A DNA stretch of 64,000 nucleotides from Gallionella capsiferriformans ES-2 (lineage in GTDB: Bacteria > Pseudomonadota > Gammaproteobacteria > Burkholderiales > Gallionellaceae): NCBI RefSeq assembly GCF_000145255.1, contig NC_014394.1, positions 1,550,001 to 1,614,000 of the forward strand, in the 5' to 3' direction. Below the pieces are notes generated by a model. It made no database searches, was not told the origin of the DNA, and was given only the letters and a program-made list of their open reading frames with translations. Both the position numbers and the translations under genes were made by a program. The first letter of the stretch is position 1; every line of letters starts with the position of its first letter. Shown here one piece after another: positions 4,373 to 19,700 of this stretch.

Positions 4373-7300
4373 TTAGTAGGTGGCATCAAGCACAAAAGCG
4401 GTCAGCCGCTCTTTGTCGCTAGAAATAGAGTTGGCTTGTTCATTGAGTTCGGCAAGAAGCGCTTCTTTCGTATCCTTGAAAACGCAATCACTTTTGCTAT
4501 CCCAGCGGCCACACATAAACCACCCGACCAGATAAATTCCACACGCCTCTCCGGCCAACTTCAAATATCGGTCATAGAGCTGGCTTTGCATCGCGGTCAT
4601 GAGCTCCTTGTTCCAGCATCCCTTGTTTTCGATAATGACAGAGATGGATCGTCCATCCTGATCTTTGGTTTCTATCTTCAGATCGGTGCGTTCACCTATA
4701 CCACGCTCTTTGAGGTTTCTGACCTGGACTTCGCGGTCAATCACGAAAGTCGGTAAATCTCTTTGCAGATGGTCCTGAATAAAGTCGGTAATGCGATCTT
4801 CGGTTTTGGGGCGTCCAACATCACCGTTTCCGGACAGGTTCCACAAGAAAGGCGCCATAAGGGGTTGCCCGTGCAGCCTTTGCTGTAATCGCTGCAAGGA
4901 TATCAGCACAGCATCCATGAGCTCGGCGCTGCTTCGGGCAAGCCGTGCATCGCTGCGATGCGTATAGGAAATCAATTCTGAGGGCGTGAGCTCTTGCAGG
5001 GTTTGCTTACGCAATGCCCGTCTGGCTTCGTTAAGCTGGAATTTCAGCCAGTCCATTTTAGGAAGGCGCGAACAAATCAAATCCAAAGCCTCTATGGCCT
5101 CCGTCGTACCCAAGCTGGATAAATAGCTCGGGCAGTTGTCGCGCATACGCCCCACTTGGTCGCGAGCTGTTACCGTGTGAGCTTCTCCAGAGGGATAGTG
5201 AGTATCACCCGCGGCAGGAAAATGTTCTTCGAGCCAAAAATACAGTTCGGCAATTTCCGGTTCTGTGAGGCGAGTCAAAATACTGCCGTTCCTATGTGAG
5301 TAGTTGGCAAGCCCCATCATCAATTCTTCGCCAAATGAAGCGTTTCTGGACATGGTTTCCCAAATCAGTTTCCAGCAACGCTGCGTTTGATAAGCGAGCA
5401 GTATCCTCGCAGCAGTTAACGCCATAGGCTGCTTATCGGTCGCCCTGACCAAGCCACACGCAAACTCGTAAGCGGTTTCATCACCATGCTCCAATAATAT
5501 TTCTAGTAAGGTGGAGATTTGCTCAGACTTCAAATCAGGCACAAGCAGATACTCACCAATCATAGATGCCACTGGCTCAGCCCATATACATGCCAACTCT
5601 CTAGCTCTATGCGGAGGTTGTGAAGCCGTAATTTCCGTATCGATTAATTTCCGAAAGGTTTTCAGCACGACTTCTGGCGCTTTCATGTAAGCCAATTGCA
5701 TTAATTTTTCGCGCTGTTCACGATCTTGGTCTAGCGGGTATGCAACCAGGAAAGTTGCCCACCGATTCCAACCATCAGATGTTGCACTCAAGAGCGTTGA
5801 GGTACTTTCATCGAACAACAGTCGCAATGCCAGATAAGTTGCAGCATACAAATTATTGACCGAACGATCATGCGGGAAAATATCTTGCGAAGTGATCCGT
5901 TCATCTTCAAGCCATGCTTTTGCACAGGCCAAAATACGTGAACGATCTCGTGACGTTGCACGCTGCCAACCTCGGGATTTCGAAACATTGTCAAAATCCC
6001 ATGAATAATTGATTGCATCATCAGATAGAAAAAGCTCCTGCCACAGTTCCATCCATGAATCATTTCGGCCCGACTCAAATTCCCGCAATGCTTCTTCAAT
6101 GCGCACAGGAGGTGGAGGGTCGAGTGGCAATGGAATATTGCTCTTCCTATTAATTTTCCGTAGGTGTAGCTCTTTAGATACCCGCGCATCTTCTGAATCC
6201 AGCCATATTGGCTCCATATACTTGGCGACAATATCCGCCAGAGGTGATTCAGGCTGACAGACATCTTCAGCAGCTGCAGAAACAACTGCATCAAGCCACG
6301 ATGTATCGGAATCCCACCGCATGAATGCATCAATACACTTTGTCAGTTTGTCCCTCAAATCAGGATGTTCGTTCTGTTTGTAGGTTTCCAACAGCCAACC
6401 AGCATCCTTGGGCAGGATGATTTTCCGTTCCCCGTAAATCAGGTTTACTGGATCGCGCTCGTTGTTTGCTCGTGCTTCGGCATTCAGCAAGGCCATGATA
6501 GCTATTCTTCTTGTTGGGTCGTCTTGCTCCAGCCAGCTTTCTTCGCGCTCGCCGCGCCGATTGAACAAATTCTCATAACGGTCAATGCAAATCCAGGCGG
6601 TGTTGGTAAAGAGTTCAAGTACATGAGGGTCATCAAACTTGCTCCACGCCTGCTTCATGACGGCATCTTTAAGGCGATTGGCATAAAAAGCTTCGTAATT
6701 CCACTGATCATCAGCAATCCATTGCAACGCTACCAACAAGTCATTGTTAGTGAATTTCGCTACAAACTCTTCTGGTTTGTAGCGAAAAACGCCCAAGCAG
6801 CGCTCACTCCGCGTTTTAATAAATAAACCGAAGATTTCCCTAGCAGAAACATGTGCTGGCCACAGTGCGGGAATGACAACCGATTTGAGCCTATCCTCTG
6901 GATCGTCGCCAGCCTCCCCCAAGGCAATGGGGCGCAGCCGCGCGAGTTGATTGTCGTTAGCAAGCTTGATAGCCGCATAAGCAGCCTCTTCTCTAAAGTG
7001 AGACTGCTCATCAGGATTTAAGGCAACAGACAGCAATTCTTCAGTCAGCTCCTTGGCTTCGCATGATGCAGCCATTTCCATGGCAGCCCTGCGTGCGACA
7101 AGACTTACCCCTAGCCCGGCAATATAGGGGCGTAGTTGCCCTGCCAAGTCGGGGTGCTTCAGTTTTCGGTAATGCTTGCGAAGCCCCCAATCTTGGTCAA
7201 ATTCGGCTCCGGCAGCGTAGGCTTGCAGCAAAGTTTCCGCCAACAGAGCTTTCTGCACATCCGTCGTGTCTGATAAATCGGTGCGCAATAAAAGCAGCGG

Positions 7301-8554
7301 TTCTTTTTTCACCAAGGCGTCGAAAATCTCGCCATCAAGCGCCGCTAGCCAGATGGCCGTTTCGGTATGCTGCGGCGGGATGCGTTTATCGTCCGGGTGA
7401 AGCAACAACGGCAGGGTGTGCCGTGCATCCAATCCGCGTGAGTACAGATGCCAGGCCGCCAGGAACTCGACATAGGACTGGTGGGCAAAGCCTGTCCTGT
7501 TTTCGCCACGTCCGGAAAAAAGGGCGGTGCATTCGACGGTTTCCTTGAGTGTACGAGAGTCAAGGGGAAAGTCATGTCCGTCTGCATGCTCAACATCACC
7601 GATCATTTCGCTTTCGATGAGGTCGCCGACATCGGCTTCCCATTCGTTACTCAGCCAGATTGATGAGCGCTGGCCGAATATCATTTGTGCCGCAATGCGC
7701 CCAGCAACCGCCATGCGTTGACGCTTGTTGAGCTTACCGGCATGACCGGCATCATTTCGGAATGAGCTGTGCTCTTCCGCAAGCGTTTCGCAGCCCTGCC
7801 GATACAACTCGGCGCGTTGTTTCGGCAGGCCGTTAGGCCGCCCAAATAAACCGAGCAGCATATTCAATGTGATTGGGTGGCTAGCGAGAGGCTGAATTTC
7901 CTTGGACAGGACTTCTTCGAGAAATATATCTCCATTCAAACCGCGGTCGGCAGCGGCCTTTTGGATGTCCATTTTGCGCAACGGAGCCAACTCGAATACG
8001 CTCATGCGATCTGCCTCGCCCTCTTTGCCGGGCCAAAGCTTACGCAATGTTTTCGTTAAATACTCAGGCCAATCGAAGGTGCGGCAGGTCAATCGCAAGG
8101 ACAGGCGATGTGTTGGAATACTCTCCAATTGCGCTGCCAGAATTCTGGCAACGGCAGGTATGGTCAAGCTGCATTCGTCCAAGCTGTCCAGCAACAAGGT
8201 CAAATGATGATGGCCGTGCTGCCAAGCCAGAAACTCTGCCGATTCAAAAAGATCATTGATAAGACGCGTGTCGGTGTGATACTGGTTCAATTCCCTGTAT
8301 AGGCATGCCTCGCCCTCAGCCTTCAAGCGATCCGACTCGACCTTCAACGCGGTAGATTTGCCAATACCCGGCTCGCCCAAGAGAATAGCTACCGGAAGTT
8401 CAATCAGTTGCTGGAGCCGCTTGGGCTGGTAGCCAGAGTAGTAATAGTAGGAATGCTTGTCGTCCGGGTCATGCAGGAAACCGGAATCATCAAGCGGTAA
8501 AAGCGCTCCCAGAGGAACCCAGAAACGAGGCCAGTCGTGATTTTGTTTTGTCAC
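4373..8554 (-). CDS. NACHT/STAND NTPase with C-terminal nuclease-like domain
   Basis: A 1393-residue protein with a P-loop NTPase near the N-terminus: Walker A GEPGIGKST at 60-68 and Walker B LLLDSLDEC at 120-128, the DxxDE arrangement typical of NACHT proteins. A long helical, repeat-like middle section of about 900 residues probably senses a ligand. The last 130 residues look like a PD-(D/E)XK nuclease fold, with D1291 followed by a strand carrying E1309-x-K1311. Bacterial NACHT and Avs proteins are anti-phage sensors that oligomerise on binding a viral protein; most carry their effector at the N-terminus, so a C-terminal nuclease is less usual. Start is GTG at 8554. No partner gene is visible on the same strand. 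The nuclease assignment rests on motif spacing only. Confidence 0.8.
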   Translation of the reverse strand: MTKQNHDWPRFWVPLGALLPLDDSGFLHDPDDKHSYYYYSGYQPKRLQQLIELPVAILLGEPGIGKSTALKVESDRLKAEGEACLYRELNQYHTDTRLINDLFESAEFLAWQHGHHHLTLLLDSLDECSLTIPAVARILAAQLESIPTHRLSLRLTCRTFDWPEYLTKTLRKLWPGKEGEADRMSVFELAPLRKMDIQKAAADRGLNGDIFLEEVLSKEIQPLASHPITLNMLLGLFGRPNGLPKQRAELYRQGCETLAEEHSSFRNDAGHAGKLNKRQRMAVAGRIAAQMIFGQRSSIWLSNEWEADVGDLIESEMIGDVEHADGHDFPLDSRTLKETVECTALFSGRGENRTGFAHQSYVEFLAAWHLYSRGLDARHTLPLLLHPDDKRIPPQHTETAIWLAALDGEIFDALVKKEPLLLLRTDLSDTTDVQKALLAETLLQAYAAGAEFDQDWGLRKHYRKLKHPDLAGQLRPYIAGLGVSLVARRAAMEMAASCEAKELTEELLSVALNPDEQSHFREEAAYAAIKLANDNQLARLRPIALGEAGDDPEDRLKSVVIPALWPAHVSAREIFGLFIKTRSERCLGVFRYKPEEFVAKFTNNDLLVALQWIADDQWNYEAFYANRLKDAVMKQAWSKFDDPHVLELFTNTAWICIDRYENLFNRRGEREESWLEQDDPTRRIAIMALLNAEARANNERDPVNLIYGERKIILPKDAGWLLETYKQNEHPDLRDKLTKCIDAFMRWDSDTSWLDAVVSAAAEDVCQPESPLADIVAKYMEPIWLDSEDARVSKELHLRKINRKSNIPLPLDPPPPVRIEEALREFESGRNDSWMELWQELFLSDDAINYSWDFDNVSKSRGWQRATSRDRSRILACAKAWLEDERITSQDIFPHDRSVNNLYAATYLALRLLFDESTSTLLSATSDGWNRWATFLVAYPLDQDREQREKLMQLAYMKAPEVVLKTFRKLIDTEITASQPPHRARELACIWAEPVASMIGEYLLVPDLKSEQISTLLEILLEHGDETAYEFACGLVRATDKQPMALTAARILLAYQTQRCWKLIWETMSRNASFGEELMMGLANYSHRNGSILTRLTEPEIAELYFWLEEHFPAAGDTHYPSGEAHTVTARDQVGRMRDNCPSYLSSLGTTEAIEALDLICSRLPKMDWLKFQLNEARRALRKQTLQELTPSELISYTHRSDARLARSSAELMDAVLISLQRLQQRLHGQPLMAPFLWNLSGNGDVGRPKTEDRITDFIQDHLQRDLPTFVIDREVQVRNLKERGIGERTDLKIETKDQDGRSISVIIENKGCWNKELMTAMQSQLYDRYLKLAGEACGIYLVGWFMCGRWDSKSDCVFKDTKEALLAELNEQANSISSDKERLTAFVLDATY

Positions 8555-8837
8555 TTATAAGTCCATGCGATGTTATATCCAGCATTCGTATTTTGAATAG
8601 CCCCCTAATTCAGTGGACACTTTACAGCCAAATAGTCTGGAATGTGCACCATTGCGGTCGTTTAACAGTACAGCACTATTTGTCGGCTATGGCCGACTTG
8701 GAGAAGCCAAACATTCTAAGTACGAACGTCTGCTGTGCTACAGAAACCAGTCGCACAAGCTCCGCACTTTGACGGACTGCAATTGGCACCTATGTGTAGA
8801 TGCGAACTATGTGCGAATTCCGGAGCAACCTGGACAC

Positions 8838-8882
8838 GCATTCCACGGCAAACTGGACAGCGATTCCACGGCAAACTGGACA
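8838..8882. repeat. Two direct repeats resembling IS21-family end repeats
   Basis: A 20-base unit with core attccacggcaaactggaca occurs twice in tandem (about 8840-8859 and 8863-8882), with two bases between. Multiple short repeats of this kind, just upstream of istA, are typical of IS21-family ends. An istA start follows about 70 bases downstream, which supports the reading. Confidence 0.7.
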
Positions 8883-9318: not shown

Positions 9319-9414
9319 AACCGGGAATTTGGGCTGTATTTTTGGTACTTGAGAAACATAAATGGCGACTCATGGAGTCACAAGCGGGTCGCACGTCTAT
9401 ACCATCATAGTTTT
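9319..9414 (+). pseudogene. IS3-family OrfB transposase fragment
   Basis: A short frame reads FGLYFWYLRN then SWSHKRVARLY, resembling the 'yyLRn...WNHKRVyRiY' region near the start of IS3-family OrfB (DDE integrase). Nothing on either side continues the gene. A second IS3 OrfB fragment, from the C-terminus and on the other strand, lies at 21929-22036. Confidence 0.55.
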
Positions 9415-9445
9415 TCACCAAATTTACAACCCATAGGAAAATACC

Positions 9446-10342
9446 GTGACCTTACAAGATGCCTGCCAATCTTTCTTATCTCACTGCCGCTCTGCCGTCA
9501 GCCTCTCTGAACACACACTTAGAGCCTACACTTTTGATTTGGAAGATTTTCAAAATCATGCTCAGCACGAAACAAATCTATCACTTCTCAATAAAGACGA
9601 TCTACGAAAATTTATTCGACACCTACGTGAAGAGCGGAAACTAAAGGAAATCACTATCAAACGTCGTATTGCCTGTTTGAAGCTGCTTTTCCGTTGGGTG
9701 CAACAAGAAAACATGATTTCCATCAATCCGTTCGACAACCTAAATGAACGCATCCGTCTTCCCAAACGCTTACCTCGTGCTTTGGGTAGCGAAGAAATAA
9801 AACTACTAACAGGAGCGATTAATCTGGAAGCAACCGACAAAGAGTTTCAAGAGTTTGTAACTGGAATTGCAACAAAATTACTTCTGACCACAGGCATACG
9901 CGTCGGAGAGCTGGTAAAAATTGATATTGAGGATCTTGTCCTTCCAGACTGCAGCCTAAAAATTCAAGGCAAGGGGAATAGACAACGACTAGTGTACTTG
10001 TTTGAACCTAAGCTGAATCAAGCCATAGCACGGTATCTTACCATACGCCTAACCCGAGCCACAGAAACCAAAAAGCTATTCATTACCGAAGCTGGAATCC
10101 CGTTTACCACACAAAAAACGAGAATATTACTTGGCGATCTCGCTAGCAAAGCGGGAATTGAGCGACGCATCACCCCACACATGTTGCGTCATACAACGGC
10201 AACCCAGTTGTTAGAAGCGGGGTTAGACATCCGCTACGTACAAAAACTGCTGGGACATCAAAGCATTTCGACGACAGAAATTTACACCCATGTTACAGAT
10301 CATGGTCTACGCACGGCACTAAAAAGGACATACCGAGATTAG
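9446..10342 (+). CDS. XerC/XerD-like tyrosine recombinase, probable DNA invertase for the adjacent switch
   Basis: A 298-residue tyrosine recombinase with an N-terminal SAM-like DNA-binding domain (about 5-90) and a catalytic domain. The expected catalytic residues are all present: R152 (GIRVGEL), K176, H245-x-x-R248 (HMLRH), H271 (LGHQS) and the nucleophile Y280 (TEIYTHV). The start is GTG at 9446, preceded by AGGA at 9435-9438. Its stop codon (10340-10342) lies one base before a 24-bp sequence whose inverted copy sits 3.5 kb downstream, with two convergent genes between. It is not the housekeeping XerC or XerD by context. The family includes simple integrases and inverters such as those that flip hsdS genes; inversion of the neighbouring segment is my inference. 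Confidence 0.9.
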   Translation: MTLQDACQSFLSHCRSAVSLSEHTLRAYTFDLEDFQNHAQHETNLSLLNKDDLRKFIRHLREERKLKEITIKRRIACLKLLFRWVQQENMISINPFDNLNERIRLPKRLPRALGSEEIKLLTGAINLEATDKEFQEFVTGIATKLLLTTGIRVGELVKIDIEDLVLPDCSLKIQGKGNRQRLVYLFEPKLNQAIARYLTIRLTRATETKKLFITEAGIPFTTQKTRILLGDLASKAGIERRITPHMLRHTTATQLLEAGLDIRYVQKLLGHQSISTTEIYTHVTDHGLRTALKRTYRD

Positions 10343-10343
10343 G

Positions 10344-10367
10344 TGATGATAACTAGGAATTATGATT
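10344..10367 (+). repeat. Left inverted repeat, candidate recombination site
   Basis: A 24-bp sequence (first 18 bases tgatgataactaggaatt, then ATGATT) identical to the reverse complement of 13825-13848. The match stops abruptly on both sides. It has the internal build of a tyrosine-recombinase core site: 7-bp arms (10346-10352 and 10360-10366) that are inverted copies with one mismatch, around a 7-base centre. It contains AGGA and the ATG of the downstream ATPase gene. Confidence 0.93.
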
Positions 10368-12866
10368 TCGATAAACGACTTGGAATTCATCAATCGAGGC
10401 ACAGAGCTTGCCTTGCTCAAAAACTATTTGCTGCGCGAACGTGGCGCAATGCCAGCTGCCATTATCATCCGTTCTCCACCCGGCGTTGGGAAGTCTCGCC
10501 TCACCGACCAACTAAGTCTTAGTTCCGGTGTGGCTGACTTGGCATTTTGTATCGTCGATCCGGAGATTCAAGGGAATACCGGATCGGCGCGTCTGCATGA
10601 CGGCTTCTTCATTCAACGGTGCGCGGAGCGTCTGGACAGTATGGCAGCTTCTGCGGATGTCCCGTGGGCTACGTTAAAGAAATTCCTGAAATCAAGAAAG
10701 CTCAAGACAGCACGGGAAAAGAAGCGATCTGACTTGATTGACGAGTTGCCGAGCCCGCGGAGTGTATACAAGATCGCACTCGACTATGCATCTCGGCTCT
10801 TTTCTTTTGGAAATTTTTCATCTGAAAAACTACTTTCGAGTGACAGCAGTGATGCAGTCAGAATTTGTGAGGAATATGCGGAGTCAATTCTAGAGTCTTA
10901 TTCCATTGCACTTGTCATACGTGAGGCTCAATACTGCGACCATCGTAGCTTACGTGCTTTGGTTCGTTGGACGGAGTCGGTTCACAGGCTTGATCTCCTG
11001 ATCGAATATACTTCCCATAACTGCGAGTTTGAGCACGGGCACCAGAAGCTACTCTATCCACTAACGGCTTTGGGTAGGTATTTTTACGTGCTCGATTTAG
11101 TACGCTTGGACGCGGGCCATCTGGAACACCTCATCCGTATGAACGTGCGTTCGGATTTTGCCATCGAAGCTAAGACATACATGTCATGGAACGGCAATTT
11201 GCGGTCTCTTATAGAAATGCAGTTCCAAGTCTTGGTCGGACACAAAATCGCAAGTCCGCAGCAGGTTGGGGAGGTCCTTTGTGACCTGACAAAGACGCTC
11301 GAAACACATATTGCCTCATTGTCGCCGTTACTTCGGATCATATTGGCGACTTGTTCAGCACACGTCGAATCAATCGCCGGATCGGTGTTGGTCGATACGG
11401 TAGTTTCCATTTCGCCAGCGACTTCACCACTACTCTTGGAAAGAGCTCTAAGCGAGTTGATAGAAACGCATAGGTTCATCATCGTTCGAGATGGCACTTA
11501 CAGAATCCACAACGAAACAGTAGCCGATGCATTACACGGAGTAGCTGAGATTCAACCGCTTCTCGCTGCTGCCGAGAAGGCGCTACGCGAATATTACTCT
11601 AAGCTCGTATTTGACTCCAAGTTCGAAGGTATTGGGATGGCTGCTGCGGTACGTCAATTCTTTCGCTTATGCGCTCGTACTAAAGATGTTGTTGGCCTGT
11701 TTCGCGCAACTGAGGCGCTGTCGAAGGAGATAGCGGGTGCTCAAGATCCATGCTTGTATGTCGAAGTTATCAGCTCTGCAGTGATCGCTGATTCGAACCT
11801 CTACGCTGAGAGTAATGACGGATTACTTCGATGGGCGGCGTTGCTTGCATATGACGTGGGGAACTTTGTTCAGACAGATAAACTATTGTCTCGAGTGCTT
11901 TCTCCAGACGCTATGAGTCTTGCAATGCACGCTTGTGCCTTGTCGGAAACCGGTGGGCATGACCAAGCATTGCAGATCGCAGAAGAACTGCGCCAGCGTG
12001 CAACTCAAGATGATACACGTTTAGTTGCGGATCTTCTCGAGGGGCTGATAGCAGGGTGCCGCGGTGACCAAGAGCATGCGCGCTTTCGTCTCTTAACGGC
12101 TATCAATAATCCATCTTATGCAAACAGCCCTCTTCTTGGTTATGCATACCGGTTCTTCGAATCCATCGAGGGATATGCTGGTTGTATTGACTATCTCAAT
12201 CGAAGTATTGCATGGTTTGGCAAGTTCGGCCTACAAAGGTCGAAAGCTTTATCACAAGCTGCGACGGCCGTACTGACTGCACGCATGGGCAAGATTGCAG
12301 AAGCACGATTGATGATCGGAGAAGCAGCCCAGATTCTTGAAGCAAAGCCATCGAGCCGTCATCTGTTGTTGAACAACATGGCTGCGGTGGATCTGCTGTC
12401 AGACGAACCGGAACCTGATACTTGCAAGCAACTGCTGGGTGAAGCATTACGCTACGTACGGGATGATTTTAGCGAAGTCACTATCCTATCGAATCTGTCT
12501 CTGGCCCATTGGGTGGCGAATGAGTTTGAGCAAGCGCAGGATTGCGTTGAAAAAATATTACAAATCCTTGGCGATCACGATTTCGCCGATCAAGAAATTT
12601 ATTGGCCCCTCTGCTTTAATGCCGCGCTGGTGATCAAAGACGCGGGATTTCCCGCGCGGGCTCAGGAGTTACTGAAACTGCCTAGCGAACGAGTGCAACT
12701 GCCCAAAATGAATCAAGAATATTGGGCTTTTCGCTATGGTGAAAACGTCTTGTTAGAAAATCAATATTGTTTTCTTGCCAGCCGTCCCTATCATCCGCTC
12801 TACCTTAGCACTTGGCTGATTGAGTCAGACGGGCTTAGTCTACTGAAGCAAGAACCGCTGCAATAA
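10362..12866 (+). CDS. STAND-like P-loop ATPase with helical-repeat C-terminus
   Basis: An 834-residue protein with a Walker A motif SPPGVGKSR at 38-46 and a weak Walker B-like strand (IALVIREAQ) near residue 185. The part after about residue 400 is rich in alanine and leucine helices with TPR-like spacing. This build resembles STAND ATPases of the MalT type, which bind a ligand through the repeats and switch on nucleotide binding; no DNA-binding or effector domain is evident. The ATG at 10362 lies inside the left inverted repeat, with AGGA only three bases before it. It is 20 bases downstream of the recombinase and may be cotranscribed with it in this orientation. Its last 32 bases overlap the convergent ATP-grasp gene. 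Confidence 0.75.
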   Translation: MISINDLEFINRGTELALLKNYLLRERGAMPAAIIIRSPPGVGKSRLTDQLSLSSGVADLAFCIVDPEIQGNTGSARLHDGFFIQRCAERLDSMAASADVPWATLKKFLKSRKLKTAREKKRSDLIDELPSPRSVYKIALDYASRLFSFGNFSSEKLLSSDSSDAVRICEEYAESILESYSIALVIREAQYCDHRSLRALVRWTESVHRLDLLIEYTSHNCEFEHGHQKLLYPLTALGRYFYVLDLVRLDAGHLEHLIRMNVRSDFAIEAKTYMSWNGNLRSLIEMQFQVLVGHKIASPQQVGEVLCDLTKTLETHIASLSPLLRIILATCSAHVESIAGSVLVDTVVSISPATSPLLLERALSELIETHRFIIVRDGTYRIHNETVADALHGVAEIQPLLAAAEKALREYYSKLVFDSKFEGIGMAAAVRQFFRLCARTKDVVGLFRATEALSKEIAGAQDPCLYVEVISSAVIADSNLYAESNDGLLRWAALLAYDVGNFVQTDKLLSRVLSPDAMSLAMHACALSETGGHDQALQIAEELRQRATQDDTRLVADLLEGLIAGCRGDQEHARFRLLTAINNPSYANSPLLGYAYRFFESIEGYAGCIDYLNRSIAWFGKFGLQRSKALSQAATAVLTARMGKIAEARLMIGEAAQILEAKPSSRHLLLNNMAAVDLLSDEPEPDTCKQLLGEALRYVRDDFSEVTILSNLSLAHWVANEFEQAQDCVEKILQILGDHDFADQEIYWPLCFNAALVIKDAGFPARAQELLKLPSERVQLPKMNQEYWAFRYGENVLLENQYCFLASRPYHPLYLSTWLIESDGLSLLKQEPLQ

Positions 12867-13830
12867 CTTCGGCGTAGCTCCACCCCTTTTCCGTGAATCC
12901 TCGCGCGAATTGTCCGCGGGGAGCTATCCACGCATCTGGAGTCAACTCAAGAAAATGGAAGTTTCCGTCAGCCAAGCGCCCATCGACGCGACAATAACCA
13001 TATGCACCAAACATTGTTAGAAAGGTATCAATAGCCGCGCGGTCATTGGCATGAAGTTCATGATCGATATTGCGAATTGTGCGCCCGACTGTTGGTATCA
13101 ATTTTTCATCGGCGTCGAATAGGTGGTTTGTAAAATAGTCGTCATTGCCTTCAATGACAACTTCACTGAAAGCCCAGGATTCTGCACCTGCATGTTGAAT
13201 TTTAGAATATGCAACCTCACGCCCGGCTACAAATTCTTCGATCAGAACCGGCTGATTGAAAGTCTCGAGTAATTCCTTTGCCAACGGCAGTACGTCGGCC
13301 ACATCGACAACGCGATTACGTTGGGCAATGCCTATAGAGCTCCCCTCCATTAAAGGCTTAATCACTACGGGTAAGCGCAGACCACTGATATATCTTAGAT
13401 CCTCGACGCTGCGCACGATGCGCCACGCTGGCGTGATGATGCCGCAATCGGATGCAAGTCGTTTGGTGACTTCTTTATCCTGAGCGACGATTCTGCCATA
13501 TACATCTGGGCCGATAAAGCGCAGCCCAAAAGTTTCACAAATCGCAGGAACAAGCGCCATTCGGTTGCGGGATGCGCGCCCACCGTAAATGGATAACACG
13601 ATATCGTTACTGTGAAGTGCGGCGTTTTTGGCTAAATCATCCGGTCCATTGTATGTATGGACGCGCAACCCGAGACTATTGATCGTGGAACGCAAAGTGT
13701 CGAGCGTCTGCGCGTCCGTCATTTCCAAATCACGTCTTTTATGAATTGGCGTAAGTTTTTCGCTCTCGCCTAGTTTGTCGGCAATAAGAACGACATCTCG
13801 AAAGGGGAATACCGTATTTGAATGAATCAT
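12835..13830 (-). CDS. D-Ala-D-Ala-ligase-like ATP-grasp protein
   Basis: A 331-residue ATP-grasp enzyme of the D-alanine-D-alanine ligase group: VVIKPLMEGSSIG at 155-167 binds ATP phosphates, LIEEFVAGREV at 196-206 and RVDGR at 281-285 follow in the right order. The metal-binding segment normally read as E-x-N-x-x-PG is changed to ELTPDAW at 295-301, so the usual asparagine is missing and the substrate is probably not D-Ala-D-Ala. Its ATG lies in the right inverted repeat, and the flanking base order matches the start region of the ATPase gene. In the present orientation it is the last gene of the TIR-TIR-SLOG transcription direction. A peptide- or nucleotide-ligase role in a conflict system is inferred. 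Confidence 0.82.
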   Translation of the reverse strand: MIHSNTVFPFRDVVLIADKLGESEKLTPIHKRRDLEMTDAQTLDTLRSTINSLGLRVHTYNGPDDLAKNAALHSNDIVLSIYGGRASRNRMALVPAICETFGLRFIGPDVYGRIVAQDKEVTKRLASDCGIITPAWRIVRSVEDLRYISGLRLPVVIKPLMEGSSIGIAQRNRVVDVADVLPLAKELLETFNQPVLIEEFVAGREVAYSKIQHAGAESWAFSEVVIEGNDDYFTNHLFDADEKLIPTVGRTIRNIDHELHANDRAAIDTFLTMFGAYGYCRVDGRLADGNFHFLELTPDAWIAPRGQFARGFTEKGWSYAEVIAAVLASVD

Positions 13831-13848
13831 AATTCCTAGTTATCATCA
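13825..13848 (-). repeat. Right inverted repeat, candidate recombination site
   Basis: Exact inverted copy of 10344-10367. On the minus strand it supplies AGGA and the ATG of the ATP-grasp gene. The next base outside each repeat differs (g at 10343, against t here on the minus strand), and inside the codon after ATGATT differs, so the identity is confined to these 24 bp. Confidence 0.93.
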
Positions 13849-13879
13849 AAGAAGTTAAGTTACTCGCTTAATATCAAAT

Positions 13880-13900
13880 CGGCAAGTGATAGCCTTGCCG
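13880..13900. promoter_or_regulatory. Stem-loop between the SLOG gene and the switch
   Basis: A perfect 7-bp stem (cggcaag / cttgccg) with a 7-base loop, in the 156-base spacer between the SLOG gene stop and the ATP-grasp start. There is no T-run after it on either strand, so it is a poor intrinsic terminator. It may be an RNA processing or regulator site for whichever gene occupies the switch. Confidence 0.45.
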
Positions 13901-13986: not shown

Positions 13987-14808
13987 TTACGCACCAGTAC
14001 CACTGGAATTCAGCAGTCCGCGCATGATAAGAGCTATTGATTGATCAATGTGCGGCGTTCTGGCAAGCGTCATGTTCTCTTCCCGAGTGAGTCCATTATT
14101 AAGGTCGGCCACAGTAAAGTTCTTAAACTCGTTCCGCCCCGGCCACCCTGAGCGAGATACCGCCCATGGCTCAATTATGCCTAGCATCTCAGCTATGTCA
14201 CGTGCACACCCGCCAAAACCGCCCAAAAGGAACAGTGGTTGTCGCGCTTTTAGCGATAACAATGCCTCTTCCGCGATGCCAGGCATTACCCCTTTGTATT
14301 GGTCGACTCGTCCGCCGAGGACAATACGAGCATGCGATTGCGACAAAATTACATGTCGCATTGTGGTCAGGCCAGCCGACCACTCATCGTCAGTAGGCTC
14401 TTGCTGTTCGAGCAGCCTCCGCTCTTCCGTCGTCTGACGTACTCCTTCGATGGTCAGGCAGACGAGTTCGGCTGCGCCGCTAAGATCGGATGAGGCTTTC
14501 GCAATGTCGGCAACGTCCATTCGAATATGCACAGGCCAAGCCAAATAGTTGACAACTCCTGTCCGATTACCCCCCTCGTCGGCATCACGATAGTGGCGGG
14601 CGACTAACTCGAACAATAACTCGCTGAAGCCATGAGCGCGCAAGTCGCCCCCGTAAACAAGGTGAGCACCAAGTGCAAGCATATGGCGCGCAATTTCTGC
14701 CATAGCATCGCGCAAGTGCTCATTACTCAAACCCAGCACTGGCATATCGGGACTCTCAGATGTCGAAATGGCAATAGCGTGCGCACCTAGTACCCCGTGA
14801 TAGCTCAT
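13987..14808 (-). CDS. SLOG-domain protein, likely nucleotide-signal sensor or processor
   Basis: A 273-residue protein with Rossmann-like glycine motifs of the SLOG superfamily: VYGGD at 51-55 followed by a helix, LGGRVDQYKGVMPGIAEE at 164-181, and LFLLGGFGGCARD at 192-204. SLOG domains bind or cleave nucleotide-derived signals; in Thoeris the SLOG part of ThsA binds the cyclic ADP-ribose isomer made by the TIR protein ThsB. Here it is a separate gene directly behind two TIR genes, which suggests the same sensing role; this is inferred. The start at 14808 is chosen because its ATG overlaps the stop of the preceding gene (ATGA) and a GGAGG-type site lies just upstream. The frame is also open further upstream. 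Confidence 0.75.
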   Translation of the reverse strand: MSYHGVLGAHAIAISTSESPDMPVLGLSNEHLRDAMAEIARHMLALGAHLVYGGDLRAHGFSELLFELVARHYRDADEGGNRTGVVNYLAWPVHIRMDVADIAKASSDLSGAAELVCLTIEGVRQTTEERRLLEQQEPTDDEWSAGLTTMRHVILSQSHARIVLGGRVDQYKGVMPGIAEEALLSLKARQPLFLLGGFGGCARDIAEMLGIIEPWAVSRSGWPGRNEFKNFTVADLNNGLTREENMTLARTPHIDQSIALIMRGLLNSSGTGA

Positions 14809-15989
14809 CGCCCTCCTCCCGCCAACCATACGGTGACGCTCCGCAATCGCACTCGTGGTGCCACATCTGCGAACAGCAATTCCTCTTCAGCACTGAGCGG
14901 CGGATCAGGATAAACAATAGTCAGTTCAGGAGTATCTGCGGTAAATGGAATAGATGCGAGCGAGATAAGCTCGGGGGGCCGAGGAAGAAACACCACAGCA
15001 GGATCGGCCATACCACGAATCAGTTCCAATCGACAACGCCACAGAAAATCTTTAAGAACTTCATCGAGCAAGCGACCAATCACAAAATCGATTCGGTTTG
15101 CGGCACCTTGCGAATCCAAGCGCACAACGGGAACGTTGCCCATATATGGGAAGCCGCGTTCATCAATGTCGCTTATGCAGTTCGCCACTACGAGCGGCAC
15201 ACTCCAGCGCTTCGCCTCGATAATTTCGCGACGGCACCACTCCCGTGAAGAGTATGAGTCGGTGTGAATCGCAACCATAGCGCTCACTTTAACTTGGAGG
15301 CGCAGAACCTTGTGAAAACGAAGAGCCGGTGGAATATCGTGAACATCGAAAAAGCTCGATAGCCCATGACCTTCATTAAGTCTGTCGCGTATCAGGCGAG
15401 CAATACGTTCACCGTCCTCATCATGCTTGGAGTGACTGAGGAAAATCTGAACCTTCTTTAAATATGCCTCCAGGGCCGCATCTTCCTCGGCGGGGTGCTT
15501 TAGGTGTTCAAGGTAGTGTCTGAGCATCCGGCAGAACTCATAGGTGAGTTCGTTGATAAGTTGTCGACTGCGCTCCTTCAGCGAGCCAGTCCAGTGGTCC
15601 CACCGAAGCGCCTGCTCTTCGATACCTAGCGCCAACGCTGACTGATCGATAGTGACAGGAAACACACGCGTACCTAGCCCATCAATTTCGGTACGCTCAA
15701 CGAGGTCACGAACGTATCCAGCCCAGCTAAGGTCCGCTGCGAGCATTGGATCAAAAAGTACCACAACAGCGGTTGTTTCCGCCTCTTTGAGATCAATAAG
15801 CATGGGCGTTGTGGAGCCAGTCGCAGGCACCGACCGAAAGATCACACTTAGACCTGCGCCACCGGCAATATTCTCATAAAGCTTACGGCGGAAATGCTCA
15901 CGCAATGCTTCAGCAATAACAGCACCCTCAAGATAGTCTGGGTGCCAAGCAACATAGAGAACGAAAAGTGGGCGTGTGAAATCTGGCAT
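14805..15989 (-). CDS. TIR-domain protein with N-terminal TIR-like domain
   Basis: A 394-residue protein. Its second half (starting near residue 180) is a clear TIR domain: IFLSHSKHDEDGE, SFFDVHDIPPA, and DSYSSREWCRREI, where the glutamate after WCRR is the likely NAD-cleaving residue. The first 125 residues look like a second, diverged domain of related alpha/beta fold (FVLYVAWHPDYLEG, AVVVLFDPML). Bacterial TIR domains cleave NAD+ or make cyclic ADP-ribose signals. The ATG at 15989 is preferred over a TTG at 16010 because AGGGA sits nine bases before it. The stop overlaps the SLOG gene start, so the two are translationally coupled. Confidence 0.85.
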   Translation of the reverse strand: MPDFTRPLFVLYVAWHPDYLEGAVIAEALREHFRRKLYENIAGGAGLSVIFRSVPATGSTTPMLIDLKEAETTAVVVLFDPMLAADLSWAGYVRDLVERTEIDGLGTRVFPVTIDQSALALGIEEQALRWDHWTGSLKERSRQLINELTYEFCRMLRHYLEHLKHPAEEDAALEAYLKKVQIFLSHSKHDEDGERIARLIRDRLNEGHGLSSFFDVHDIPPALRFHKVLRLQVKVSAMVAIHTDSYSSREWCRREIIEAKRWSVPLVVANCISDIDERGFPYMGNVPVVRLDSQGAANRIDFVIGRLLDEVLKDFLWRCRLELIRGMADPAVVFLPRPPELISLASIPFTADTPELTIVYPDPPLSAEEELLFADVAPRVRLRSVTVWLAGGGR

Positions 15990-16091
15990 CAGGCATTCCC
16001 TAAACGACAATCAGGGGTGTTGGTGATTAACCACGCGCTACGAGCCCTCGCCTTAGCAACATACCGCTCAAAATAAGATGCCACTGCGATT

Positions 16092-16637
16092 CTAGCGCTG
16101 CCAGCCGTTGCCAGAGCGGTTTCTCTCAAAACTCGGGAAGGAATTGACTGGAATTATCTTGTTTCGCCGAAGAAACGCGTCATGTATCCATTTCTGCACA
16201 TCGTCAGGATTCGAACTCCATTTATAAAGACTAGCAAAGCCACAATTAACGTTGTCATAAAGACGCGGCGGAATTGTATGAGGGTCATAGGTATGCTCTG
16301 AAGACAGAGGATAACTAGGCAGGAATATACCCAGCAATCCCGACCGAGGGTTTAGCTTTGTATCTCGAATACTGGATGCGATTTCCCAATCAACGTGTTT
16401 TCGTTGCCAAGTCTGAGCACCGATTAGCACAACGGTCACCGTTGATTCCCTGAGATATTCGTCACGGACCTTCTGGCGAATTGTTTCAGTTGCGAGTGAG
16501 GGTTCAATGTCTCCAATCTGAACTGATTTAGAAATCATTATTTCGTGCTTTCCCGCAAACAAATTTTCGAATTTGTTTCGATCAACCTGATCGTTAGCGT
16601 GGTGGTAACTTACAAAAACCTTATGACGCATGCTCAT
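16092..16637 (-). CDS. ThsB-like small TIR protein
   Basis: A 181-residue single-domain protein with KVFVSYHHAND at residues 6-16 and TVVLIGAQTW...VDWEIASSI at about 68-90, the pattern of the TIR-like family (formerly DUF1863) that contains Thoeris ThsB. The glutamate after DW (E85) is the candidate catalytic residue. In Thoeris these proteins detect phage and produce a cyclic ADP-ribose isomer. It is the first gene of the TIR-TIR-SLOG group, with about 100 bases before the next TIR gene. AGGGGA precedes the ATG by eight bases. Confidence 0.85.
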   Translation of the reverse strand: MSMRHKVFVSYHHANDQVDRNKFENLFAGKHEIMISKSVQIGDIEPSLATETIRQKVRDEYLRESTVTVVLIGAQTWQRKHVDWEIASSIRDTKLNPRSGLLGIFLPSYPLSSEHTYDPHTIPPRLYDNVNCGFASLYKWSSNPDDVQKWIHDAFLRRNKIIPVNSFPSFERNRSGNGWQR

Positions 16638-16789: not shown

Positions 16790-19700
16790 TTAGCGTTTCT
16801 TAATTAAGCACAATATTGTCTCCCATGACTTCACTTTAAGACGATCGCGCCATCCCGCATCTGAAACTGCCTCTTCATGACGTGATGCGATCGCAAAAAC
16901 GCTGATTGAAATAACATCTACCTCAGAAATGCTACAGTTTTTCGACAACCGCCCAACAACAATCCCCGCCATAGTCTGAAGTTCCCGTCCTGTCAGTCGA
17001 AGTTCAGCACCTACAACCAGCGAGGCAATCGCGCGATGAATCGCAGCATCGGCAGGCAGGCGGCCTGCGAAATCCATATCCACATCAGCCAAACCCAATT
17101 CGATAAATTTTATGTCTAGGGCTGGATCAGCCTGAGGATAAAAACCTAAGTCACTTAATAGAGCATATCGCTGATTGCGTATGGTGATACTAAAAGGATT
17201 GGGGGAATCGAAAAACTCAAACAATGTCAGCGTTTGTTTGGCTCGCGTCATTCCAACGTAATACAAGCGTCTTTCCTCTGGAGTCGATTGCGACAGCCAG
17301 TCGCCGTCGAGCACAATGACATGGTTGAATTCACGACCTTTTGATGCATGGACAGTTGAAATAGTCAGTTTTCCTGCAATGGAACTACGTTGTTCATTAC
17401 TGAACTCAAATATCCACTCTAACAACTGGCTGGACGGAATTTCATCCATACTCCATGCAACGCAAAATTCTTCGATACACTGCTGCAACAATTTCAACCA
17501 ATGATTCGCAGGTTGTTTGGCGACATGATTGTTGATCCAGCGCACCAGAGTTCTCTTGGCAACAAGTTTTCGCCTTGAGTTCAGTAACAGACGAATCAAC
17601 AATTGTCCTTCTCTTAGCTGATTCAGCTTAAGATTTTCAGCGGTGCGACCATTCTCAATTTGAACGCACGGAATACCATTCAACTCACAATATGCACGAA
17701 TGGGGGTAAGCAGCTTATGACTCCTTGCAAGTATCGCAAAATCCCCCCAATTAGCAGATGGTAATAACTCAAAAAGCCTGCGAACCTCGGCCATCGCCAT
17801 TTGCGCCTGAATGTTGGCATCAGATGAACAACGAACGACGTGCACCCTGCCCTTGACAAGGCTATCAAGCTTTTCCCATCGCCCACCATAAAAATCAGTT
17901 TGACGTCTAAAATTTATGCGAATTGGATGTTCTTGTTTAAGGCGCTCAGGGTTATCCGAGATTATTTGATTCGCAGCCGCAATGATGTGTGAACTTGACC
18001 GGTAATTTTCAATGAGATATTCAATTTTTGCCTGATAGTCCTCTTGAAAACGCTTGATGAATTCATTGCTGGTCTTACGAAATTCATAAATATTCTGGTC
18101 ATCGTCCCCTACCGCCATGATGGTAAGCTTCGAATCACGATCTGCCTGTACTCTGCCAGTAAGCGCACTAATTAAATCATACTGATCTGCGTCGATATCC
18201 TGATACTCATCAACCAGAATATAGCGGTAACCTTGCAGCAATTTATCTCTCAACTCATCAGAGTCATCTTCTCCCAGTCGTCCATTACCCTGCAATAAAT
18301 TTATTGCATTCCTAATGATCTCATCAAAATTAGGCGTATCATTTTTCTCTGCCATACCGCGCAAAGATGTTCCCGTGAGACGCATAGCCATAGCATGGTA
18401 AGTCAGCACAGTAACCCCATAAGCATCCTGCCCGACCAAATCAATCAACCGTTTTCTCACTTCAAAAGCAGCCAAACGATTAAATGTCAGCACTATGATG
18501 CCATCCGCAGGCGTACGCAAAACCCGCAGTAAATATGCAACGCGATGTACGATCACACGCGTCTTACCCGATCCAGGCCCCGCAAGAATCAAACGGTTCG
18601 TATCACTTTTGTCGGCCACTAAAGACTGTTGTAATGGATGTTTCAGATTATCAACAATTCTATTTAAAGACTCGCCCGTTGTTGCAAGCTCTAGCAACTC
18701 TTTGCGACTAGCAAAGTAACGTTTAATGAAATCACTTTTAGACCAGCGAAAATAAGCAGCGATGAAAACCATCGCATCATTGAGCTTCTCCAGCCCGAGA
18801 CGCGCGTACTCCTGCACCACATGAATCTGAAAATTTCGCTCCTCATAATACTCTTGAAGACCGACATAATCGCTTTGTCTGAAACCACGCTTGGCCTCAT
18901 CAGCAAATACATGAATCGTCATGGCCGATCTGAACACTGTACGTCCGCGATCCAAATGAATGGACTTGATACGATCAAGGTACATCAGTCCCTGCTCAAG
19001 TGCCTTTGCCTCATCCCGAATCTGTCCAATCATGCCAAGGTCTTCGCGCAGGACTTCACATAATTTGCCCGCAGTGCTTTCCACTAACAGGTCAGCACCG
19101 CGCGTTTCGGCAGGTAATTTCCCCAAAAAGAAACTCAGCAATACTTGAGATATAGCGCGACGTTTGTCACTAATCTCTCTAATTTGTTGCCAAGAGCGCC
19201 GCAACTTAACCCTGAAGTGATCACGCGTAATCTTCTTGATCTCAAAACTTGGACGTTCAGCCTGCGTATTACCGAACGGCTGACTCATAGCGCGTAACAA
19301 AGACAACAAGTCATCTGTGATCACCTCGGCACCAATGCGATCTTTGACACCTTGGCAAAGATTACGAAGATTCAATTCTTGCCATTCGTTGGCCTCAGAA
19401 TCAGGGGTACGCTCTGCCAACAAGTCTAGTAAGGCCTGCTCAATTGTCGCAATCTGAACAAACCTATCCTGTGATGAGTTCGCAATCCCCTTACGCAATC
19501 TCACCGTGATACCGATGTCATTACTCAAAATTCCCAGCAACTCCATTTGTTGAAGTACTCGCATGCACTCGTCGCTATGCATACCTGTTTGCAGCATTAA
19601 TTCATCCGTACTAATGCCGTCTGTTGCATCTGCATTAATCAGCAGTTGGACAATTTTCAAATATTTGGCTTGATTGTCCACGGTTAAATTTGCCGCCTTC

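What the first reader, a model, noticed from the sequence alone, without database searches (positions are those of the whole stretch)
10344..13848. Putative phase-variable segment: recombinase-linked 24-bp inverted repeats carrying the start codons of two convergent defence-like genes
Seen: a 24-bp sequence at 10344-10367 is repeated exactly in inverse at 13825-13848; a tyrosine recombinase with all catalytic residues ends one base before the left copy; both enclosed genes begin inside the repeats, so any inversion keeps the frames. Each repeat has 7-bp inverted arms around a 7-base centre, as tyrosine-recombinase core sites do. Known: XerC/D- and FimB-like enzymes flip promoters and hsdS genes this way. 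Inferred: flipping decides whether the STAND-like ATPase or the ATP-grasp ligase is expressed with the TIR-TIR-SLOG operon. I do not recall a described defence system in which whole partner genes are swapped like this.
Basis: partly seen in the sequence, partly recalled or inferred. Interest (0 to 1): 0.96.

Follow-up and report, generated by a model that had tools for sequence, protein, structure and literature searches.

The report
Invertible, swappable two-gene defence cassette
Beside predicted antiviral genes, a bacterial recombinase gene adjoins a block of two tail-to-tail genes held between mirror-image copies of a short DNA site; relatives carry the block in either orientation or with a wholly different gene pair in the same slot, so the recombinase likely flips it and would thereby switch which of the two genes the cell uses.

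Summary
Two exact 24-bp inverted copies (10344-10367, 13825-13848) bound a 3,505-bp block holding a predicted STAND-TPR ATPase and a predicted ATP-grasp ligase, next to a Xer-like recombinase. The same design (recombinase, two inverted ATAA-N7-TTAT sites, convergent gene pair) recurs in Pseudomonadota, Campylobacterota and Bacillota. Inversion in nature is shown by comparison: two Aliarcobacter cryaerophilus plasmids with near-identical flanks carry the block inverted, 99.9% identical, with breakpoints at the sites. Three of nine draft assemblies with a module break at both sites, as a mixed-orientation population would cause, and a 99%-identical copy of the window's ATPase lies on a contig of exactly 3,505 bp. 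In Aliarcobacter, in Streptococcus plasmids and within the window's own genus, the block is replaced by different gene pairs with breakpoints at the sites, so the cassette is exchangeable too. The TIR-TIR-SLOG operon is only a neighbour. That flipping switches expression, and that this serves phage defence, is inferred. Ten searches of the paper library found no description of it.

The parts
9396..9445 (+). Upstream edge of the module
   Evidence: blastn homology to the same-genus relative G001 (L005) begins at 9396 and runs through the recombinase to 10363, the end of the left site core
9446..10342 (+). Xer-like tyrosine recombinase (298 aa)
   Evidence: Phage_integrase PF00589 E 3.4e-37; XerC/XerD models below their curated cut-offs; all six catalytic residues
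10344..10367 (+). Left copy of the inverted repeat; core ATAA-CTAGGAA-TTAT at 10349-10363; holds the start codon of the ATPase gene
10362..12866 (+). Cargo gene 1: predicted STAND-type ATPase with TPR-like repeats (834 aa)
12835..13830 (-). Cargo gene 2: predicted ATP-grasp ligase of the D-Ala-D-Ala ligase fold family (331 aa), convergent with gene 1, 3' ends overlapping by 32 bp
   Evidence: Dala_Dala_lig_C E 6.2e-14; below curated Ddl cut-offs
13825..13848 (-). Right copy of the inverted repeat; core at 13829-13843; holds the start codon of the ATP-grasp gene
13849..13889 (.). Conserved right tail of the module (41 bp outside the site)
   Evidence: 13826-13889 is 84.6% identical to G001 although the neighbouring genes differ

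Best explanation
A 3,505-bp block with two complete, tail-to-tail genes (a predicted STAND-type ATPase and a predicted ATP-grasp ligase) lies between two exact inverted copies of a dif-like site beside a Xer-like recombinase, which likely flips the block so that the two genes would take turns in the expressed position next to the recombinase. Shown: the anatomy; both orientations in closely related natural plasmids with breakpoints at the sites; assembly breaks at the sites in two isolates and one further draft genome; replacement of the whole block by different convergent gene pairs at the same sites. Inferred: that this recombinase does the cutting at ATAA-N7-TTAT, that it also mediates the exchange of cargo between molecules, that orientation sets expression (through read-through from the recombinase gene in the proteobacterial and Aliarcobacter loci), and that the switch serves as bet-hedging in phage defence: one slot state makes a STAND sensor, the other a small-molecule or peptide enzyme. 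Confidence by step: the block inverts in nature about 0.95; the window's own copy inverts about 0.85; orientation switches expression about 0.7; defence role about 0.5.
For: Direct flip: L114 (pACRY43158) and L115 (pM830MA) share flanks at 100% (985 bp) and 99.8% (3,653 bp), while the block is inverted at 99.9% over 3,458 bp, ending at the 17-bp repeats. Orientation: of nine loci with an ATPase/ATP-grasp pair read from recombinase to far site, five have the ATPase and four the ATP-grasp gene next to the recombinase. Assembly: Burkholderia sp. WAC0059 has two contigs ending at the last base of the site core and a 3,508-bp contig running site to site; in Pseudothauera the flanking contigs overrun the shared repeat to 16+111=127 bp, and in G201 to 19+36=55 bp. 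Lengths: 32 of 120 listed ATP-grasp relatives have a longest contig of 3,450-3,530 bp (about 0.5 expected by a crude log-uniform estimate), 10 of 30 ATPase relatives likewise; for the G001-type cassette (3,598 bp) 6 of 38 lie at 3,550-3,630 bp. P0121, 824 of 834 residues identical to the window's ATPase, has a longest contig of exactly 3,505 bp. Sites: the centre takes five forms between 12 loci, each time the same in both copies. Cargo exchange at the sites. Defence context: PADLOC hits in the five loci that I chose to scan.
Against: No reads, RNA or experiment were available. A promoter scan outside the sites was inconclusive, and the Shine-Dalgarno-like AGGA in the centre pairs no better with the anti-SD than shuffled sequence. 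In Streptococcus the recombinase points away from the block, so read-through from it is not the general rule. Amphritea L008 sits, by my reading of its ORFs, between his genes and an efflux operon, not in an evident defence island. The ATPase and ATP-grasp families co-diversify (r 0.93 over 45 pairs of ten loci; 0 of 2,000 permutations as high), which could mean that they work together and not as alternatives. Recombinases of similar distance without a paired site exist (L130, L132, and ten plasmid loci, one of which has only the ends of an insertion sequence). Six of the nine draft assemblies run through the block unbroken. The finished window genome shows one orientation only.
Confidence: 0.72

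Rival explanations
1. The sites serve mainly for exchange and spread of the cassette (recombinase-mediated cassette exchange between DNA molecules); inversion is a by-product, and both genes are expressed in either orientation as one functional pair.
For: Different cargo at one locus with breakpoints at the sites in three settings; the two genes co-diversify; in several loci something could read into the far slot (the SLOG operon in the window; by my reading of the ORFs, hisF in L008 and hyp genes in L010).
Against: Exchange alone does not explain contig breaks at both sites in isolate genomes or the exact flip between sister plasmids with unchanged flanks.
Confidence: 0.22
2. One reading: the flip chooses whether the ATPase or the ATP-grasp ligase joins the TIR-TIR-SLOG operon.
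For: In the window the operon is transcribed toward the right site, with 138 bp between the SLOG stop and the repeat.
Against: No TIR or SLOG match in the other module loci scanned by tblastn; the recombinase and sites are the constant part. The one other SLOG relative found in 379 genomes lies in a genome without the 16-mer site.
Confidence: 0.05
3. A fossil: inverted repeats left by a transposon, with the orientation differences and contig breaks due to assembly artefacts.
For: Short inverted repeats at element ends are common; one control recombinase locus had a 19-bp pair around an annotated IS5 element (L126).
Against: Two plasmid records listed as complete show the clean flip; site centres differ between loci but not within one; contig overruns fit exact k-mer lengths; catalytic residues intact in 15 of 15 recombinases.
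Confidence: 0.03

Closest known systems
Vpma/Vsp switches of Mycoplasma agalactiae and M. bovis (Xer1/Mbr tyrosine recombinases)
   Different: Mycoplasma genes are a family of surface lipoproteins around a single promoter; here there are two unrelated genes and two sites, and the pair as a whole is exchanged for others.
Gin/Cin/Pin invertible segments of phages Mu, P1 and e14; PinQ P segment
   Same: An invertible segment with convergent alternative genes (recalled; for PinQ and phage T2 adsorption the abstract's start and passages of PMC12529663 were seen).
   Different: Serine recombinases and alternative tail-fibre or adhesin parts (recalled); here a tyrosine recombinase and complete, unrelated genes.
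Phase-variable hsdS loci (PsrA of Streptococcus pneumoniae)
   Same: Tyrosine recombinase and, for the PsrA-dependent inversion, 15-bp inverted repeats in a restriction-modification locus (PMC4948785, passages read).
   Different: hsdS inversion recombines parts of homologous genes; here intact ORFs move.
XerC/XerD-dif
   Same: Fold, catalytic residues and ATAA...TTAT inner arms (dif sequence recalled).
   Different: A separate gene from the genome's own XerD and a further paralogue that I read as XerC; scores far below the XerC/XerD cut-offs; a 7-base centre; paired inverted sites.
Integrons
   Same: Tyrosine recombinase and exchangeable cargo.
   Different: Integron integrase cut-off not met; cargo is a convergent gene pair between two inverted sites, not an array of single-gene cassettes with attC (recalled).

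Membership tests
Tyrosine-recombinase inverton (site-specific inversion system) | Tyrosine recombinase with intact catalytic residues beside the segment | tested here: met
Tyrosine-recombinase inverton (site-specific inversion system) | Segment bounded by inverted copies of one recombination site | tested here: met
   24-bp exact pair; none in 100 shuffles
Tyrosine-recombinase inverton (site-specific inversion system) | Both orientations exist in near-identical DNA | tested here: met
   Met for the family in two A. cryaerophilus plasmids; for the window's own species only indirect (3,505-bp contig of P0121)
Tyrosine-recombinase inverton (site-specific inversion system) | Inversion depends on the linked recombinase | not testable with these tools
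   Needs a reporter or a deletion strain
Phase-variable expression switch | Orientation decides which gene is expressed | tested here: inconclusive
   Promoter-like scores in the outer flanks of 12 loci not above shuffles, lowest p 0.05 in L131
XerC/XerD | Equivalog cut-off of TIGR02224/TIGR02225 | tested here: not met
   218.5 of 335.15 bits and 207.6 of 329.6 bits
Integron integrase | NCBIfam TIGR02249 cut-off | tested here: not met
   115.7 of 265 bits
STAND NTPases | P-loop NTPase followed by superstructure-forming repeats in one chain, with the fold of known STAND proteins | tested here: met
   G41, G43, K44, S45 invariant in 29 rows; fold matches 6mfv_A STAND-TPR and 8bob_C MalT. In one search TPR-only proteins rank above them, since the TPR half fills the list; a winged helix was not tested by itself
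D-alanine--D-alanine ligase | Curated Ddl cut-offs | tested here: not met
   80.3 of 243 and 79.3 of 245.65 bits; the Pfam C-terminal domain is met
Thoeris / TIR-SLOG system | Conserved linkage of the block to TIR and SLOG genes | tested here: not met
   No TIR/SLOG match in other module loci scanned by tblastn; plasmid loci judged by annotation, pMRAD01 with a TIR gene about 2.4 kb away
Known anti-phage systems (PADLOC 2.0.0) | Cargo genes match a known system | tested here: not met
   ATP-grasp none; ATPase only a generic TPR model at 1.4e-4; of nine proteins of other cassettes only L111's ATPase has weak hits (IetA, 2.9e-4 at best)

The most novel reading that the evidence does not exclude
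A cross-phylum class of self-contained flip-and-swap modules: one Xer-like recombinase acting on two inverted dif-like sites both toggles a pair of genes (typically a STAND-TPR immune sensor against a small-molecule or peptide enzyme) and lets the whole pair be replaced by another, giving bacteria a phase-variable and modular defence slot.
Probability: 0.5. Interest if true: 0.92.

Novelty: new variant of a known kind. Interest (0 to 1): 0.86.

Why it matters
Phase variation is known best for surface antigens and for hsdS. A module that toggles between two unrelated complete genes beside defence systems, and whose cargo is exchangeable at fixed short sites, would mean that a clonal population is a mixture of two immune states that ordinary assemblies hide or break. 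It predicts that such genes can be found by their sites alone, without homology. It offers a set of short recombination sites that may be orthogonal: two modules with different centres share one plasmid. It also makes testable whether STAND ATPases and their enzyme partners work together or in turns.

Tried and rejected
Promoters outside the sites: scored for 12 loci against shuffles, not conclusive. Shine-Dalgarno role of the centre: AGGA is present, but pairing is not better than in shuffled sequence; kept only as a possibility. Single origin of the inverton recombinases: on a 28-row tree the label is clustered (4 changes, 0 of 500 shuffles as low) but is not one clade; the window's clade of five is all inverton at 100/99. 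Two rows of that tree were incomplete (L130, 141 aa; L124, 256 aa).

Phage origin: an ATP-grasp alignment scan of the viral contigs found none; the 15-mer gave 63 viral stretches, each with a single copy and no pair, which I take as chance; of 48 phage records with a recombinase hit the ten shown are 33% identical at most.

Recombinase similarity alone does not define the module: of 21 recombinase loci tested, 11 have an exact inverted match of 15-24 bp starting -3 to +43 nt from the recombinase stop (largest shuffle value 10-16), 9 have only 9-10 bp (shuffle level), and one has a 19-bp pair around an annotated IS5 element. Of 19 plasmid records with recombinase hits I opened 14. Of the three new phylum-level hits, one had a site pair (L131) and two had none. 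The 1e-58 threshold is strict: G201, found by its sites, is not among the matches.

The reversed-pattern control gave one chance match in one of the 369 genomes (G341). The sixth genome-contig hit (L011, 45 residues) was dropped as spurious. A weak plasmid hit in Sinorhizobium (28%, no recombinase annotated in the stretch shown) was not counted. The length bands were chosen after seeing the lists.

Literature: ten searches listed no description of such a module; some of them asked about neighbours (TIR/SLOG, Aliarcobacter, S. salivarius). Only the open-licence PMC library was searchable, no preprints. Passages, not whole texts, were seen of PMC12529663, PMC7365950, PMC9503650, PMC2268961 and PMC4948785; the rest were listings.
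Full report
What is there. In the window a 298-aa Xer-like tyrosine recombinase (9446-10342, +) is followed after one base by a 24-bp sequence whose exact reverse complement lies at 13825-13848. Between them, 3,505 bp including both copies, are two complete convergent genes that start inside the repeats and overlap by 32 bp at their 3' ends: an 834-aa ATPase (10362-12866, +) and a 331-aa ATP-grasp protein (12835-13830, -). No third copy exists in the finished 3.16-Mb genome at up to three mismatches, and 100 shuffles of the window give none.

The same design elsewhere. A scan of one genome per species with the ATP-grasp family gave six loci; five are real relatives (L006-L010) and all five carry a pair of inverted sites with the core ATAACTAGGAATTAT. 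Three have the recombinase next to the block on the same contig; in the other two the contig ends at the sites and the recombinase lies at the end of another contig of the same genome. The 16-mer GATAACTAGGAATTAT occurs in 3 of 369 genomes of the class, each time once forward and once reverse; the 15-mer core occurs in 2 of 399 genomes of the order, again as pairs. Plasmid records add Methylobacterium radiotolerans pMRAD01 and two modules on Aliarcobacter cryaerophilus pACRY43158. Streptococcus salivarius and S. equinus megaplasmids carry a version whose recombinase points away from the block. In all of these the site reads ATAA-N7-TTAT. In the 12 proteobacterial and Aliarcobacter loci the centre takes five forms between loci and is the same in both copies of each locus; identity of the copies is partly how the pairs were recognised, and L114, L115 and L116 share one locus type. 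The two modules on one Aliarcobacter plasmid have different centres (TAGGATA and TAGGTAA), which would keep them from recombining with each other (inference).

Does it flip? Yes, by comparison of natural sequences. Plasmids pACRY43158 and pM830MA share a recombinase and a far-flank protein of identical accession. At DNA level the flanks are colinear (100% over 985 bp; 99.8% over 3,653 bp), and the block is inverted at 99.9% over 3,458 bp, with both breakpoints in the 17-bp repeats. Across nine loci with an ATPase/ATP-grasp pair read from the recombinase to the far site, the gene beside the recombinase is the ATPase in five (window, L005, L008, L113, L114) and the ATP-grasp in four (L006, L010, L111, L115).

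Mixed orientation within cultures is indicated by assemblies. Of nine draft genomes with a module (eight, plus G898), three are broken at both sites and six are not. In Burkholderia sp. WAC0059 two long contigs end at the last base of the site core and a 3,508-bp contig runs from site to site. In Pseudothauera nasutitermitis the flanking contigs overrun the 16-bp shared repeat by 111 bp, 127 in all, and a 3,524-bp contig is the block. In G201 they overrun a 19-bp shared repeat by 36 bp, 55 in all, and the ATPase was not found in that genome. 55 and 127 are usual SPAdes k values (recalled; the assemblers used are not known to me). A repeat of 16-19 bp is shorter than such a k, so a single orientation would not break the graph.

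The protein collection shows the same. Of 120 listed ATP-grasp relatives (of 286 found), 32 have a longest contig of 3,450-3,530 bp, against about 0.5 expected by a crude log-uniform estimate from the other lengths of 2-6 kb; 10 of 30 ATPase relatives do too. For the longer cassette of G001 (3,598 bp) the peak moves: 6 of 38 at 3,550-3,630 bp and 1 of 38 at 3,450-3,530. The nearest relative of the window's ATPase (824 of 834 residues identical) has a longest contig of exactly 3,505 bp, the length of the window's block. I saw only that contig's length, not its DNA.

Does it swap? Aliarcobacter faecis has the same flanks (97.6% across the recombinase side, 90.8% on the far side), but between the sites a GNAT acetyltransferase and a methyltransferase replace the ATPase/ATP-grasp pair. 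Streptococcus plasmids have three pairs at one locus: methyltransferase with a hypothetical protein (pSAL813 and pSaLI10, identical over the 12,119 bp compared and counted once), polyprenyl synthetase with a hypothetical protein (pSsal-NU10; S. equinus), and a STAND/TPR-like protein with an SHMT-like PLP enzyme (ICDC2). They show no DNA similarity between the sites, while the recombinase side is 91% and the 208-210 bp beyond the far site 97-98% identical, with similarity ending in the sites; further out the far flank is rearranged. Within the window's own genus, the window and G001 share the recombinase up to the left site, and the right site plus 41 bp, and nothing between: G001 carries a distant ATPase/ATP-grasp pair (about 16% and 18% identical). 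This also marks the module's edges at 9396 and 13889. Exchange by the recombinase itself is my inference.

What the cargo has in common. One gene is usually an enzyme acting on small molecules or peptides (ATP-grasp, glycosyltransferase, acetyltransferase, methyltransferase, prenyl synthetase, SHMT-like). The other is most often an AAA/TPR protein that I take for STAND by homology or Pfam (only the window's was folded): the ATPase/ATP-grasp loci, L131 (glycosyltransferase ORFs with a 1,231-aa protein with AAA_16 and TPR matches) and ICDC2. Exceptions are L020 (glycosyltransferase with a 226-aa protein), L116 and the two cassettes with a hypothetical protein. Two glycosyltransferases match the Pfam family of conflict-system GT4 enzymes. 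ATPase and ATP-grasp identities correlate over ten loci (r 0.93, 45 pairs, 0 of 2,000 permutations as high), so the pair travels, and perhaps works, as a unit.

Setting. PADLOC finds defence-gene matches beside the five loci that I chose to scan: Dsr1-like in the window, SspF/SspG beside G001's module, Gabija genes and JetA beside L006, a type I restriction enzyme near L010, SoFic beside L114. This is a chosen set; L008 sits, by my reading, between his genes and an efflux operon, and the flanks of L018, L020, L111, L113 and L131 were not scanned. The window's host is probably a member of Gallionellaceae: a protein 98% identical to G001's ATP-grasp is named so, and G001 is in the window's genus.

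How it most likely works. The recombinase pairs the two inverted sites and flips the block (shown as an outcome, enzyme inferred). In the proteobacterial and Aliarcobacter loci it points at its site and its stop lies from 3 nt inside to 48 nt before the site, so the gene flipped into that slot would be co-transcribed with it; the other gene depends on the far flank (inference). In Streptococcus the near slot is divergent from the recombinase gene, so a shared control region there is more likely. A clonal population would then hold two expression states. In a defence island this would be bet-hedging between a sensor state and an enzyme state, or timing of a pair that is harmful when co-expressed. 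The rival, that both genes are always on and the sites serve cargo exchange, is not excluded.

Novelty. Inversion by tyrosine recombinases and the joining of whole genes to one promoter are known (Vpma with Xer1, PMC2268961; hsdS with PsrA, PMC4948785; passages read for both). Ten library searches listed no account of a two-gene invertible module with exchangeable, unrelated cargo, so I call it a new variant of a known kind.

Noticed in passing
window 13987-16637 (-): TIR-TIR-SLOG operon: ThsB_TIR (PF08937), TIR_2 protein and SLOG cluster2 (PF18163); a Thoeris-like set. SLOG relatives at E<=1e-30 in 2 of 379 genomes of the order, own included.
   Followed up: partly
window 284-4093 (+): 1,269-aa SIR2 protein matching PADLOC Dsr1 models, best 7.5e-83.
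   Followed up: no
window 16790-21913 (-): 1,707-aa protein with a DpdF-like helicase part and a UvrD/GajB-like helicase part in one chain.
   Followed up: no
window 4373-8554 (-): 1,393-aa STAND-like protein with only weak Pfam matches (NPHP3_N, nSTAND_NTPase5).
   Followed up: no
L115 1937-4407 (-): In pM830MA the ATPase, here in the far slot, is annotated as two overlapping reading frames, while the inverted sister copy in pACRY43158 is one frame.
   Followed up: no
L113 5023-9804 and L114 7943-12368: One plasmid (pACRY43158) carries two separate modules with different site centres; one has an extra YbaK/EbsC gene inside the block.
   Followed up: partly
L131 1156-8101: Phylum-level relative with glycosyltransferase domains in two overlapping frames and a 1,231-aa AAA/TPR protein whose N-terminus looks to me, by eye, like a restriction-type nuclease.
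   Followed up: partly
L120 5980-12013: Sulfitobacter plasmid: a related recombinase without a paired site is followed by three annotated TIR-domain genes.
   Followed up: no
window 8814-8882: Three head-to-tail 23-bp repeats with GGCAAACTGGACA, perhaps an insertion-sequence end.
   Followed up: no
window 13849-13889: 41 bp outside the right site are conserved with G001 although the genes beyond differ; possible promoter of the far slot or accessory site.
   Followed up: partly
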